The notes under the pieces: generated by a model
Told to the model about the DNA's origin: nothing
The model's input: only the letters and a program-made list of their open reading frames with translations
Databases searched by the model: none
Source of the DNA: Tepidisphaeraceae bacterium
GTDB lineage: Bacteria > Planctomycetota > Phycisphaerae > Tepidisphaerales > Tepidisphaeraceae
Assembly (NCBI GenBank): GCA_035998445.1
Contig: DASYHQ010000061.1
Location: 248,001 to 312,000, forward strand
Length of the DNA: 64,000 bases
Direction: 5' to 3'
Program-made: the position numbers and the translations under genes
Shown here: piece after piece, positions 53,394 through 58,780 of the stretch
Position numbering within the stretch: the first letter of the stretch is position 1
Layout of the letters: every line of letters begins with the position of its first letter

Positions 53394-53632
53394 CTGAAGA
53401 ACCTTGCGCATCAAACGCGGAAGCGTGCCCACGAATTAGCACTAATCAGCACGAAAAGGGCGAAATGGAATGCGATGCGATCGTCTCTTATTCGTGTTCC
53501 TTCGTGCCCATTCGTGGGCGATGTTTTCGTCGGCCTTGCAGGCCGTTTCATTCGACTGACGGCACTTTTGATGCGCAAGGTTCTGAAGCACACCCTACGT
53601 AACGATCCGAATTTGACTCCCGACCCCTTATT
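53394..53632. repeat. Nested inverted repeats, decayed element
   Basis: Outer arms CTGAAGAACCTTGCGCATCA (53395) and TGATGCGCAAGGTTCTGAAG (53567) pair with one indel. Inner arms are CACGAATTAGCACTAATCAG / CGTGCCCATTCGTGGG. At 53612-53632 lies a 21-bp sequence (GACTCCCGACCCC core) whose exact complement is at 58393-58413. No gene is supported in the 53226-53737 gap. Confidence 0.7.
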
Positions 53633-53737
53633 CAACTCCAACGGGATGGTAAACAGTTACGCGACCTGTTGCTTAAGCCTACATGCCGAATTCACGCGCG
53701 CAATGCTCGGTCGCAGGTGAAGCTTACCTCGTCGCAA

Positions 53738-54472: not shown

Positions 54473-55344
54473 AGATCCTCTGATTGGGGACGCAACAGTT
54501 GAGTTCGACGACAGGAAAACGAATTGCAATGGGTGTATACCACAACTTTCGCGACAGTCCAGAAGAATGTTGCCGCTAAACCTCAATCGTCGGGCGTTTC
54601 TCTGCACCTTCACCGTCCGCACACGGAAAACGGGACGGGCAGACAGATGCTTATCTCCAGCAACTGCACGTCACGTTATCCGGGTTCGTCCACGCGTCCC
54701 CTCCTGTAAACCGGTGAGCGGACGTTCAGACGTCCTTGGGTGGCTTTAATCCCGCAATGGATCGCGGGTCGAGGAAAAGAGGTCGGGAGTCATTTTTCCA
54801 CGGCATCAAAGACTCCCGACCCCTTTAATTGCCCGACCCCTTTAATTGCCGCCGAAGCGTTCGAAGCGTGGCCATGTCTTGGTCCGAACGAAAGACATGG
54901 CCACGCGGGACGTTTACCAGACGATCGCGCGACCACCCCCGCGTGGCCATGGCACCCACCTACGAAGGACATGCCACCCGCCCGCTGCGGTGGGTGCCAT
55001 GGCCACGCCTGCCGATCGCGCCCGTCCGCCGAAGCGTTCGAAGCGTGGCCATGTCTTAGTCCGAACGAAAGACATGGCCACGCGGGACGTCCATCCGATC
55101 ATCCAACGGTCTCCCACCGCGTGGCCATGGCACCCACATTCGAAGGACATGCCACCCGCCCGCATCCTCCGCGCCGAAACCGCCACCCTCGTCGCCCTCA
55201 CCATGGCCCATGCGACGTGGGGGATTTCAGAAGGAGGTAGAGTCCGGTGCACGATCATCCCAGTCGCTGCGGATTGCTACCACGATCGCCGTTTACCGTC
55301 TGCGAGATACTGACAGCCTTTCGAGGGGAAGTTACATTGCGCGT
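54473..55344. other. Repeat-filled region before the nuclease-NTPase gene
   Basis: 872 bases. It contains an inverted GGTCGGGAGTC pair (54781-54791 and 54811-54822), a tandem CCCGACCCCTTTAATTGC (54817-54851), and two copies of a GTGGCCATGTCTT..AAGACATGGCCAC hairpin block. No host-like gene is supported. Near its end a strong AAGGAGGT lies at 55231-55238. Confidence 0.65.
54843..55165. repeat. Duplicated block of GTGGCCATG hairpins
   Basis: Block 1 (about 54843-54985) and block 2 (about 55025-55165) share GCCGAAGCGTTCGAAGCGTG, GCCATGTCTT[G/A]GTCCGAACG, AAGACATGGCCACGCGGGAC and GCGTGGCCATGGCACCCAC in the same order. Each block has two hairpins; the first stem is GTGGCCATGTCTT with AAGACATGGCCAC. 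The stretches between the shared parts differ. Confidence 0.8.
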
Positions 55345-55390
55345 ATGTCAAAACAGATTGAGGCGGGGCTTTCGGCTCTTGAAAACTTGA
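55247..55390 (+). CDS. Possible 47-residue leader ORF overlapping the nuclease-NTPase start
   Basis: A GTG at 55247 follows a near-perfect AAGGAGGT ribosome site (55231-55238) by eight bases and opens a frame of 47 codons (beginning MHDHPSRCGLLPRSP) that stops at 55390, 43 bases inside the next gene and in a different frame. The product is basic and Cys-containing with no known motif. It may be a leader peptide that couples translation, or the site may be fortuitous. Codon use gives no support for a conserved protein, so this is tentative. Confidence 0.25.
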   Translation: MHDHPSRCGLLPRSPFTVCEILTAFRGEVTLRVCQNRLRRGFRLLKT

Positions 55391-57783
55391 GTGCGAGGGC
55401 AGTGTACAGGAAAGCAGATCGCAACGAAGACACCACGCGTCTACACCTGGTCGACGCCCTCTTCTTTGAGGTACTCGGGTGGGACAAGGCAGAGTGTGTT
55501 ACTGAGGAAGCCCACGGAGGCGAGTACGCGGACTACGTCTTTTCCAACCCCCAGCCGATACTGATCGTTGAAGCGAAGCGCGAGGGAAAGTATTTCGAGG
55601 TTACATCCGGTTCGAACGATCCTAATCAGTCATTGCGGCCCCTCATTCGAGGCAATGCCGAGCTTAAGGCTGCGCTAGAACAGGTCTGCGGATACTGTCA
55701 AACGCGAGGGGTGAAATACGGTGTTGCGACAAACGGACATCAGATAGTGGCAATGGTAGCCGTCCGCGACGACGGTGTGCCCCCGCTTGACGGACGGGCC
55801 CTAGTGTTTGGTTCCTTCGAAGAGATAAAGAGCAGCTTCCACGTTTTCTGGAACGGACTGTCCCGAGAAGGGATCGCCGATAGAAACCTCACCCGAATGC
55901 TCTTGGGGAAGAACCGTCCTCACGTACCGGCCCGACTCTCTGCAAGCATTTTTCCCTACCCGGGAGTTAAAGGCCGAAACCGGCTTCAGGCACAACTTCA
56001 GGTGTTGAGCGAGTTGGCACTTGAAGACCTACCAAAATCAAAGGAACTCAAAGAAGAGTTTCTCAAACGCTGCTACTGTCAAAGTGGTGCTCTATCGCAG
56101 CACTCCGCAACGGCGAGGAACCTGCTTTTGGCGCGTTATGCGGCTTTGTTCGATTCAGAGTCGCCGGGACCGGTGCACAGCCCAGCTTCGACAAAGAGCG
56201 GAATCACGCAGGAACTTCTGGCCGAAAGTATAAGTCGTCGGCCGATCCTGCTCATCGGCGACGTCGGTGTAGGAAAAACCACCTTCATCGATCACCTTAC
56301 ATACGTCGAGGCAAAGCAGATCCTTGCCAAGTCGGTAATGCTGTATGTCGATCTCGGATCGGAAGCCACTCTCACGCGGGATGTTCAGAACCATATTCTC
56401 GAAGTTATCGCACGGCAGTTGCACGATAACTACGACGTGAACGTCGATGACGATGGCTTCGTCCGCGAAGTTTACGAAAAGGAATTGACAGACTTCGAAC
56501 GCGGGATTTTCGGGCGCCTCAAGGCGAGTGCTCAATCGGTCTATTTGGAGAAGGAAATCGCTCACCTCGCGGGGCTAATCGGAAGACGAGACCAGCACAT
56601 CAGGCGGGCACTTGAGCATCTGTCGCTCAAACGAAACCACCAGATCGTTCTCTTTATCGATAATGCGGACCAACGAATTGAGCGGGATTATGCCGTGCAA
56701 CAACAATCGTTCTTGATCGCCGAAGAGATCGCGAAAAACTGGCCAGTGATGGTGTTTCTCACTCTGAGGCCAGAAACGTTCCATCGCTCACTCAAATCGG
56801 GATCTCTGAGCGGATACCATCCGAAAGCGTTCACGATTGCTCCCCCTCGGATTGATGAGGTGCTTCAAAAGCGGTTTACCTTTTCGCAGCGTTTGCTAAC
56901 GCAAGTAAATAAGCTCCCAGCAAACGCTCTGAAGCTCGCGCCCGACATCCAAAAGATCAATGTGCTGATGGACGTTTTTCAGAGGTCATTGAGAGTCAAT
57001 CCCGATCTCGCGAGGTTCATCGACAACATAGCGGCGGGCAATGTACGGCTCGCTCTGGATATGGTCAGGAACTTCTTTGGCAGCGGCCACGTCGACACAA
57101 GCTATATACTCGAAGTCGAATCGAGAAAAGGTGAACGATACGTTATACCGGTACATCAGTTCTTTCGGGCAATCGCGTTTGGTGATAATGAACATTATTC
57201 GCCTGACGCGACGCCAATCGCGAACCTGTTCGACATCGTATATCCGGACCCGAAGGAGCATTTTCTTCGGCCGCTGTTGCTTTCCATTCTGTACGAAAAC
57301 TCAAGGACCGGTGATGGCTTCGTTGAGACCGGAGCTGTCTACTCTCGTTTGCAATCGTTAGGGTACCTTGCCGATCAGGTGGATGAAGCCATCCTCCAGT
57401 GCCTTCAGAAGAAGCTCCTAGAAACATCCGGTCGGAGGAATCCGGCTCTAAGCACTAATCCTTCATCTGTGCTAAGGATCACGCAAATCGGCGCTTATCA
57501 TATCTCTGAATTGTGCATGAGCTTTCAGTATATCGACACAATCCTCGTCGACGTCCCTGTTACGGATAGCGCGGTACGAAGTTCAATGGATAGCAAAACG
57601 TACATCCTCGACAGGCTTGCAAGATGCAGAATGTTCTGCGGATATTTGGATGAGTGCTGGAACAATATCAAGCCGAGCACGATTGCCTGGAATTGGCCGC
57701 AAGTGCGTCAGAGGATAGTTGACAGCATGGCGCGAGTTGAGGCATCTGCTAAAAAGCGTGAACGGTATGATCTTGTGGATTGA
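55345..57783 (+). CDS. Nuclease-NTPase fusion, candidate single-gene defence protein
   Basis: An 812-residue protein in three parts. Residues 1-180 resemble the HsdR N-terminal nuclease: a PD-(D/E)xK site formed by Asp63 (YADYVF) and Glu76-x-Lys78 (ILIVEAKREG), then VCGYCQTRGVKYGVATNGHQ, the usual Q-x-x-x-Y helix and TNG strand. Residues 290-590 are a P-loop NTPase: Walker A GDVGVGKTT (Lys311), Walker B IVLFIDNADQR (Asp439) and a sensor-like MVFLTLRPETFHRS. Residues about 655-710 look like a winged helix (AVYSRLQSLGYLADQVDEAI). No methylase or specificity subunit is nearby, so this is not a classical restriction system. GC is visibly lower than in neighbouring genes, suggesting transfer. Chosen start: ATG 55345. 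Confidence 0.8.
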   Translation: MSKQIEAGLSALENLSARAVYRKADRNEDTTRLHLVDALFFEVLGWDKAECVTEEAHGGEYADYVFSNPQPILIVEAKREGKYFEVTSGSNDPNQSLRPLIRGNAELKAALEQVCGYCQTRGVKYGVATNGHQIVAMVAVRDDGVPPLDGRALVFGSFEEIKSSFHVFWNGLSREGIADRNLTRMLLGKNRPHVPARLSASIFPYPGVKGRNRLQAQLQVLSELALEDLPKSKELKEEFLKRCYCQSGALSQHSATARNLLLARYAALFDSESPGPVHSPASTKSGITQELLAESISRRPILLIGDVGVGKTTFIDHLTYVEAKQILAKSVMLYVDLGSEATLTRDVQNHILEVIARQLHDNYDVNVDDDGFVREVYEKELTDFERGIFGRLKASAQSVYLEKEIAHLAGLIGRRDQHIRRALEHLSLKRNHQIVLFIDNADQRIERDYAVQQQSFLIAEEIAKNWPVMVFLTLRPETFHRSLKSGSLSGYHPKAFTIAPPRIDEVLQKRFTFSQRLLTQVNKLPANALKLAPDIQKINVLMDVFQRSLRVNPDLARFIDNIAAGNVRLALDMVRNFFGSGHVDTSYILEVESRKGERYVIPVHQFFRAIAFGDNEHYSPDATPIANLFDIVYPDPKEHFLRPLLLSILYENSRTGDGFVETGAVYSRLQSLGYLADQVDEAILQCLQKKLLETSGRRNPALSTNPSSVLRITQIGAYHISELCMSFQYIDTILVDVPVTDSAVRSSMDSKTYILDRLARCRMFCGYLDECWNNIKPSTIAWNWPQVRQRIVDSMARVEASAKKRERYDLVD

Positions 57784-57784
57784 A

Positions 57785-57960
57785 CAGGCGGGTGGCGTGG
57801 CCACACTCGCGGTTCGCGTCGGCGGGTGGCACGGGCTGGTACTCCTGCCTGTGCGGGTTGGCCGTCGGAAAGCACAGGTACGAGTAGGAACCTGTGCCAC
57901 CCGCCGCCAAAGATTTGTGGGACGTGGCGGGTGGCACAGGTTGATATTTCGACCTGAGGC
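57785..57960. repeat. GGTGGCAC-type inverted repeats after the nuclease-NTPase gene
   Basis: CGGGTGGCACGGGCTGGTAC near 57820 pairs imperfectly with GAACCTGTGCCACCCGCC near 57888, with GCACAGG words in the loop; a further GGCGGGTGGCACAGG follows at about 57925. Related sequence occurs at 18062-18158. It may terminate the upstream transcript. Confidence 0.65.
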
Positions 57961-57965
57961 TTGAG

Positions 57966-58397
57966 TTGGCGAACCTGCACGGGGGGCGGGGTGTTACCAA
58001 TGATGCGGCGGTGTCGAACGATGCGAGAGGCCGTCGCAGGAATCACCCTCGTAAAGAATTCAATGAAGGTCTAAAAGAATTAAATGAAGGCTGCAAAGAA
58101 TTTCGGGAAAGCTTCTGGGAATTCCTGGAGGGTCTCAACGATATTCGGGAAGGCTTCAAAGATATTAAAGAGGGCGTAAAAGAATTCCGGGAGAGCTTCC
58201 GCAATATCAAAAAGGGTCTCAAAGATATTCGGGAAGGCTTCTCGAATATTAAAATGACCTTCAAAGAATTCCCGGAGACCTTCTCGAATATCAAAGAAGG
58301 TCAAAAAGAATTCCCGGAGACCTTCCGGAATATTCTAGAAACGTTTATTTGGACGTTCGGCCGGGATGGGGACGGCGGGGCGGGCGGGGGAGAATAA
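57966..58397 (+). CDS. Heptad-repeat protein with aromatic/aliphatic core (14 tandem heptads)
   Basis: A 143-residue frame starting at TTG 57966 with GAGG six bases upstream. From 58053 to 58346 it consists of 14 contiguous 21-base units encoding heptads such as KEFNEGL, KEFRESF, NDIREGF, KDIKEGV and KEFPETF. Position 3 is Phe/Ile/Leu and position 7 is mostly Phe/Leu/Val, giving the 4-3 spacing of a coiled coil with a Phe-rich core; other positions are charged. Units vary at third codon positions (GAA/GAG, GGC/GGT), as expected under coding constraint, but the array is also open in two frames of the other strand. GC is low. It follows the nuclease-NTPase gene by 182 bases. Function unknown. 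Confidence 0.5.
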   Translation: MANLHGGRGVTNDAAVSNDARGRRRNHPRKEFNEGLKELNEGCKEFRESFWEFLEGLNDIREGFKDIKEGVKEFRESFRNIKKGLKDIREGFSNIKMTFKEFPETFSNIKEGQKEFPETFRNILETFIWTFGRDGDGGAGGGE

Positions 58398-58780
58398 GGG
58401 GTCGGGAGTCAAATCGTGATTCGACGCCCGACGCCTTATCGCCCCGCCCGTTGAGTCGGGAGGCGCATCTGTGTCGACGGATGGAGCATCTCTCGGGCAT
58501 TGTGCGGACGGCGGAGGCGAGGGGACCGCGTTGTTGAGCTGCAAAGGGGCTTTCGGGTTATTGGCCGTGGGAAGTACGGGGGCGGCGGGGGCACGGCCCG
58601 TGCGTGGCCGTGTTCGGAATTCGCGGGGTGGATCGGCTCGCCTCGGCAGGCGGATGATGGGTTGCCGCCGGTTGGGCGACCGGTCGGCATCACCCACCTG
58701 TCGCGATTCTGCTTGATCGGGTTCGGGGATTTCATCACAATCGCGGTACGGCGACAGCACCACCAAGATGGGGAATCCAT
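58398..58780. other. Intergenic region after the heptad-repeat ORF
   Basis: 383 bases. A 21-bp sequence at 58393-58413 is the exact reverse complement of 53612-53632. The remainder is GC-rich with long open frames on both strands but no family character; no gene is supported. Confidence 0.5.

What the first reader, a model, noticed from the sequence alone, without database searches (positions are those of the whole stretch)
55345..57783. Orphan HsdR-like nuclease fused to a P-loop NTPase and winged helix
The sequence shows a PD-(D/E)xK site (Asp63, Glu76, Lys78), a Walker A (GDVGVGKTT) and Walker B (FIDNADQ), and a likely winged helix, in one 812-residue chain. Known defence proteins (Avs and other STAND ATPases with nuclease effectors) use nuclease plus NTPase, but here the nuclease is N-terminal and of the type I restriction kind, with no methylase, specificity subunit or helicase nearby. 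The lower GC indicates recent transfer. A sense-and-cleave single-gene system is an inference.
Basis: partly seen in the sequence, partly recalled or inferred. Interest (0 to 1): 0.78.

Follow-up and report, generated by a model that had tools for sequence, protein, structure and literature searches.

The report
Prophage-borne HsdR-nuclease AAA+ ATPase family
This gene makes a single protein that joins a DNA-cutting domain to an ATP-driven switch, belongs to a large uncharacterised family carried by prophages and plasmids across many bacterial phyla, and is probably a stand-alone weapon against phages or plasmids, though nobody has tested it.

Summary
Window 55345-57783 (+) encodes an 812-residue protein with the stated PD-(D/E)xK residues (D63, E76, K78), Walker A (305-313) and Walker B (437-443). 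It also carries the QxxxY motif (Q113, Y117) known from HsdR/RecB nucleases. Structure prediction (pLDDT 87.6, pTM 0.85) gives an HsdR-type nuclease domain, a Cdc6/ORC-like AAA+ ATPase and a winged helix. It is no one-off. It belongs to phrog_14719 (unknown function, E 9e-84), and at least 95 candidate genome loci encode a relative; the near-full-length ones aligned share about 29-45% identity and span 13 phyla. The nuclease and ATPase residues are invariant in them. The gene stands alone, is sparse (8 of 392 genomes of the phylum), and has lower GC than its flanks in 46 of 48 loci. In E. coli it occupies a variable cargo slot of lambdoid prophages, where another strain carries a Tmn-like defence gene. 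In Klebsiella a homologue sits at the P2 gpQ defence hotspot. Best reading: a mobile, single-gene, ATP-gated nuclease for anti-phage or anti-plasmid immunity (about 0.55); trigger unknown. The claimed contrast with Avs is wrong (Avs effectors are N-terminal too), and recent transfer is not shown. New variant of a known kind.

The parts
55345..57783 (+). Complete gene, 812 aa, member of phrog_14719
55345..55914 (+). HsdR-type PD-(D/E)xK nuclease domain (residues 1-190; D63, E76, K78; QxxxY at Q113/Y117)
   Evidence: (3h1t Z 10.8, rmsd 3.1 over 116 residues)
55936..56211 (+). Helical linker (about residues 198-289), partly low confidence around 250-280
56212..57219 (+). AAA+ ATPase of Cdc6/ORC-TnsC type (about residues 290-625)
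56257..56283 (+). Walker A GDVGVGKTT (residues 305-313)
56653..56673 (+). Walker B FIDNADQ (residues 437-443)
57046..57048 (+). R568 in GN-R, candidate sensor-2 arginine
   Evidence: invariant in 73 relatives; the role is inferred
57250..57483 (+). Winged-helix domain (about residues 636-713)
57523..57780 (+). C-terminal helical region (residues 727-812); only the last 30 residues are poorly conserved

Best explanation
The gene is a mobile, single-gene immunity effector against incoming DNA (phage or plasmid). An ORC/Cdc6-like AAA+ ATPase with a winged helix acts as an ATP-dependent switch. On meeting a trigger, most simply a nucleic-acid structure bound through the winged helix and ATPase, it oligomerises and brings several N-terminal HsdR-type nuclease domains onto DNA, which is then cut; either the invader alone or the cell's DNA as well is lost. 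Shown here: the domains, their invariant catalytic residues, stand-alone gene organisation, sparse distribution, foreign composition, and residence in prophages and plasmids, including known or likely defence-cargo sites. Inferred: nuclease activity, oligomerisation, the trigger, and protection.
For: Nuclease: HsdR fragment 3h1t is matched by the fold (Z 10.8, 116 residues, rmsd 3.1), and the profile lines up its DY...EAK and QxxxY stretches, though weakly on its own (E 0.38). ATPase: Cdc6/ORC Z 12.4-12.9, TnsC 12.1, MuB 10.4, Avs3 10.6, RdrA 9.7. Catalytic residues are invariant across relatives from 13 phyla. Family: phrog_14719. No conserved partner gene in about 80 loci; recombinase or integrase clusters recur as neighbours in 10, 6 and 6 loci, several integrases directly beside a tRNA gene (L066, L068, L076, L080, L084, L110). 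Sparse: 8 of 392 genomes of the phylum, none of 60 nearest relatives by direct search. Gene GC is below flank GC in 46 of 48 loci, mean -11.7 points, p 2e-13. In E. coli it is found in 8 and 7 of 5,426 genomes, and the four loci opened are lambdoid/Rac prophages. The flank DUF977 occurs in 4,013 genomes while the slot beside it varies, and strain D3 has a Tmn-like gene there (PADLOC E 1e-66). The Paracoccus plasmid homologue is adjacent to another Tmn-like gene (E 8e-78). The K. aerogenes homologue follows P2-like gpP and gpQ, the cos-proximal hotspot described in PMC9122126. Phage-type contigs carry it as cargo: L033, on the opposite strand between tail and head genes with HK97-type capsid and portal, and L024, beside DnaB.
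Against: No experiment. PADLOC 2023 has no model for it. Defence genes were not visibly enriched among immediate neighbours compared with genes more than 6.5 kb away. The window's own locus is surrounded by housekeeping genes, not an island. Some other occupants of the E. coli slot are not defence genes (a transporter, QueH). It was not found in 50,697 isolated phage records. The C-terminal half is as conserved as the rest, unlike a fast-evolving pathogen sensor.
Confidence: 0.55

Rival explanations
1. It is a single-chain, ATP-dependent restriction enzyme of type IV style: the AAA+ domain recognises or moves along modified or foreign DNA and the HsdR-type domain cuts that DNA directly, as McrBC or GmrSD do, without abortive cell death.
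For: HsdR-type nuclease with QxxxY; one K. aerogenes homologue is annotated 'Predicted type IV restriction endonuclease'; ORC, TnsC and MuB, the best ATPase matches, bind DNA; there is no linked methylase to protect the host in the window; distant relatives end in cold-shock or S1 domains, which bind nucleic acids.
Against: No recognisable modified-base reader domain; no helicase motor; the AAA+ type differs from the McrB GTPase (own knowledge, not compared here).
Confidence: 0.25
2. It serves the mobile element itself (target selection, replication, excision or plasmid maintenance), in the manner of TnsA plus TnsC or an ORC-like initiator.
For: AAA+ fold near TnsC, MuB and ORC; a PD-(D/E)xK nuclease beside a TnsC-like ATPase recalls Tn7; found on plasmids and prophages.
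Against: No conserved transposase, terminus or other partner. It sits in unrelated prophages, plasmids and lone chromosomal sites, sometimes opposite to the phage operon, which fits cargo, not an element function.
Confidence: 0.1
3. It is a host housekeeping protein (DNA repair or replication) inherited vertically.
For: The family tree is largely clustered by phylum (13 changes against a minimum of 12).
Against: 8 of 392 genomes of the phylum, 15 or fewer of 5,426 E. coli genomes and only in prophages among the four loci opened, low GC in 46 of 48 loci, several broken copies.
Confidence: 0.03

Closest known systems
phrog_14719 (PHROGs v4, unknown function)
   Same: Full-length sequence family; the window protein matches residues 16-751 with E 8.8e-84
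   Different: Nothing is known of its function; some members carry an added cold-shock or S1 domain at the C-terminus
Type I restriction subunit HsdR (N-terminal domain, e.g. 3h1t, EcoR124I)
   Same: PD-(D/E)xK nuclease fold and QxxxY motif
   Different: Fused to an AAA+ ORC-like ATPase instead of a helicase motor; no HsdM or HsdS nearby
Avs (AVAST) STAND nucleases
   Same: N-terminal nuclease, central NTPase with fold similarity to Avs3 (8dgc Z 10.6), single large gene
   Different: 812 residues, Walker B DN, ends in winged helix and helices with no large repeat sensor; no Avs model hit in PADLOC
Tmn (KAP-type transmembrane NTPase defence)
   Same: Single-gene P-loop NTPase in the same mobile cargo sites; KAP Pfam model matched by E. 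coli and Klebsiella relatives above its cut-off
   Different: No transmembrane segment; carries a nuclease
TnsC / MuB / Cdc6-ORC AAA+ ATPases
   Same: Best-matching ATPase folds, Z 10-13 over about 230-250 residues; winged helix follows as in Cdc6/ORC
   Different: Fused N-terminal nuclease; no transposase or origin context

Membership tests
phrog_14719 | Full-length profile match | tested here: met
   E 8.8e-84, protein 16-751, profile 16-759 of 833
Type I HsdR | PD-(D/E)xK nuclease with QxxxY | tested here: met
   D63, E76, K78, Q113, Y117 invariant; 3h1t Z 10.8
Type I HsdR | SF2 helicase/translocase motor in the same chain | tested here: not met
   The only P-loop domain is AAA+ of ORC/TnsC type
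Type I HsdR | Linked hsdM and hsdS | tested here: not met
   Absent around the window gene; nearest N6_Mtase on other contigs
Avs / STAND | N-terminal effector, central NTPase | tested here: met
   Model layout; Avs3 Z 10.6
Avs / STAND | Walker B hhhhD[D/E] | tested here: not met
   LFIDN; D439-N440 invariant
Avs / STAND | Large C-terminal sensor, usually repeats | tested here: not met
   Only about 190 residues after the ATPase: winged helix plus helices
Avs / STAND | Match to PADLOC Avs models | tested here: not met
   None at E up to 1
KAP P-loop NTPase | KAP_NTPase Pfam model above cut-off | tested here: inconclusive
   Met by relatives L006 (28.7 bits) and L008 (25.6) against a cut-off of 20; not listed for the window protein
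KAP P-loop NTPase | Transmembrane segments in the P-loop domain | tested here: not met
   Highest 19-residue hydropathy 1.17
Cdc6/ORC-like AAA+ | AAA+ core followed by winged helix | tested here: met
   Z 12.4-12.9; C-terminal matches are winged-helix proteins
Cdc6/ORC-like AAA+ | Binds DNA through ATPase and winged helix | not testable with these tools
   Needs biochemistry
Known anti-phage defence system | Model in a curated defence collection | tested here: not met
   PADLOC 2023: best E 8e-4, P-loop only; NCBIfam best E 0.002, far below cut-off
Known anti-phage defence system | Demonstrated protection against phage | not testable with these tools
   Needs plaque assays

The most novel reading that the evidence does not exclude
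A distinct, unrecognised class of immune nuclease in which an initiator-type (Cdc6/ORC/TnsC-like) AAA+ ATPase, rather than a STAND receptor or a helicase, senses a conserved nucleic-acid structure of invading elements, such as a replication intermediate, and licenses an HsdR-type nuclease in one polypeptide. The evenly conserved C-terminus and the cold-shock/S1 tails of distant members would reflect nucleic-acid sensing.
Probability: 0.25. Interest if true: 0.75.

Novelty: new variant of a known kind. Interest (0 to 1): 0.52.

Why it matters
A family with invariant nuclease and ATPase active sites, found in 13 phyla and carried as lone cargo by E. coli prophages and by Klebsiella and Enterobacter plasmids, has no match in the 2023 PADLOC models, no specific curated NCBIfam or Pfam model found here, and no paper found in the library. 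If it protects, it is a single-gene defence with easily cloned E. coli alleles, and it links the HsdR nuclease to an initiator-type ATPase, a different solution from helicase-driven restriction and from STAND receptors. It would also mark the DUF977-hokD slot of lambdoid prophages as a place to look for other defence genes.

Tried and rejected
Single-sequence scans of genome and viral collections found nothing; alignment-based scans were needed. A search of 50,697 phage records found none with either query. A paired inverted repeat flanking the gene (53611-53633 and 58392-58414) was considered as terminal repeats of an element, but its core GGGGTCGGGAGTC occurs 30 times in the genome, mostly as closely spaced inverted pairs, so it looks like a dispersed REP-like hairpin. 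A defence-island test by PADLOC counts near versus far gave no clear enrichment; only the 25 top rows per set are shown, so it is a weak test. A clean inter-phylum transfer signal in the tree was expected and not found: labels cluster by phylum, although the two planctomycete rows (the window and L039) do not group. Weak matches to mad8, AAA_22, NACHT and Sll1717 cover only the P-loop region and were not used to assign a family. The full-profile search of solved structures gave only P-loop chance hits. Paper searches by accession and by domain terms gave nothing on this family.

Full report
Observation. The reading frame 55345-57783 encodes 812 residues and contains every motif at the stated positions. 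The gene has 52.2% GC against 64.2 +/- 2.1% for 39 other ORFs of the window. Its neighbours are ordinary host genes and the genome holds one copy.

Family. Curated general and defence libraries give only P-loop matches plus a sub-threshold HSDR_N_2 hit. PHROGs gives phrog_14719, unknown function, E 8.8e-84 over almost the whole chain. Homologues occur on 30 plasmid records. After one empty scan, an alignment-guided scan of genome contigs found 95 candidate stretches that encode a relative; 80 were kept as loci. The near-full-length ones aligned are about 29-45% identical to the window protein and span 13 phyla. About 70 are 777-835 residues long, so the architecture is stable. In 73 aligned chains the nuclease and ATPase residues are invariant. 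Conservation is even along the chain, and only the first 20 and last 30 residues are loose. Distant relatives add two cold-shock domains (L014) or an S1 domain (L015) at the C-terminus.

Structure. AlphaFold2 with 60 sequences gave mean pLDDT 87.6 and pTM 0.85. The N-terminus has the order helix, three strands, helix, strands, with D63 in the second strand, E76 in the third and Q113/Y117 on the following helix, as in PD-(D/E)xK enzymes. VIA-align matched HsdR 3h1t at Z 10.8 (116 residues, rmsd 3.1). The ATPase matched Cdc6/ORC at Z 12.4-12.9, TnsC 12.1, MuB 10.4, Avs3 10.6 and RdrA 9.7. The C-terminal part folded alone (pLDDT 90.0) matched winged-helix proteins almost exclusively, top Z 7.2; this supports a winged helix but not a specific relative.

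Mobility. The family is sparse: 8 of 392 genomes of the window's phylum by profile, and 0 of 60 close relatives by direct search. The gene has lower GC than its flanks in 46 of 48 loci with adequate flanks, mean difference 11.7 points. No neighbour gene is conserved, while recombinases and integrases recur, several next to tRNA genes. In E. coli two subfamilies occur in 8 and 7 of 5,426 genomes. The four loci opened are Rac or other lambdoid prophages, with the gene between DUF977 and either hokD or DUF1367. The DUF977 flank is present in 4,013 genomes, but only 7 share most of the region upstream of this gene. In other strains the slot holds a Tmn-like protein (L114, E 1e-66), unknown proteins, a transporter or QueH. 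In K. aerogenes the homologue follows P2-type terminase and portal genes, which is the position of the P2 hotspot of antiviral genes (PMC9122126). On a Paracoccus plasmid it is next to a second Tmn-like gene. In a phage-type contig with HK97-type capsid and portal it lies on the strand opposite to the structural genes.

Interpretation. The active-site conservation implies that the protein is used as an ATP-dependent nuclease. The stand-alone, low-GC, prophage and plasmid cargo pattern is that of single-gene immunity. The ATPase resembles DNA-binding initiators and transposition regulators more than STAND receptors, and the C-terminus is not hypervariable. I therefore favour sensing of a nucleic-acid feature over sensing of a phage protein, but this step is inference. 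A type IV-like restriction enzyme is the main rival and overlaps with the best explanation. An element-maintenance role is less likely because the gene moves among unrelated elements without partners. Vertical housekeeping is close to excluded by the distribution, even though the tree itself is largely clustered by phylum.

Limits. The genome scan selected for GDVGVGK and QQxxF stretches, so conservation there is inflated. The near-versus-far defence comparison showed no enrichment. Prophage context was read from annotation for four E. coli loci and from selected gene checks for two viral contigs. MAG loci may contain frame errors: about nine of the 82 extracted frames are short or split, three of them by an in-frame stop. 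PADLOC dates from 2023, so a later description of this family cannot be excluded. Nothing here shows activity.

Noticed in passing
window 57966-58397: ORF of 143 aa made of about 21-nt/42-nt repeats (KEFRESFRNIKKGLKDIREGFSNIK and similar), reading as a repetitive amphipathic sequence just downstream of the gene; no Pfam match.
   Followed up: partly
window 53611-53633, 54776-54826, 58392-58414: Dispersed palindromic element with core GGGGTCGGGAGTC, 30 exact copies in the genome, usually as inverted pairs about 32 bp apart; REP-like.
   Followed up: partly
window 54849-55163 and 57820-57983: Two direct repeats about 177 bp apart with internal inverted repeats upstream, and imperfect inverted repeats downstream of the gene; repeat-rich borders of the low-GC insert.
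   Followed up: no
L014:8929-11799 and L015:8170-10851: Distant relatives with C-terminal cold-shock (two copies) or S1 RNA-binding domains, suggesting a nucleic-acid-sensing tail.
   Followed up: no
L114:5823-9455: 1210-aa Tmn-like protein occupying the same DUF977-hokD prophage slot in E. coli D3; the slot is a candidate uncatalogued cargo hotspot of lambdoid prophages.
   Followed up: partly
L086:3763-6216, L089:9797-12361, L097:999-3449: Family genes interrupted by in-frame TGA or TAG at different places after the nuclease motifs, probably decaying copies or assembly errors.
   Followed up: partly
L115:5615-7594 and L117:5602-6624: Uncharacterised proteins without PADLOC matches in the same E. 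coli prophage slot, possible further defence candidates.
   Followed up: no
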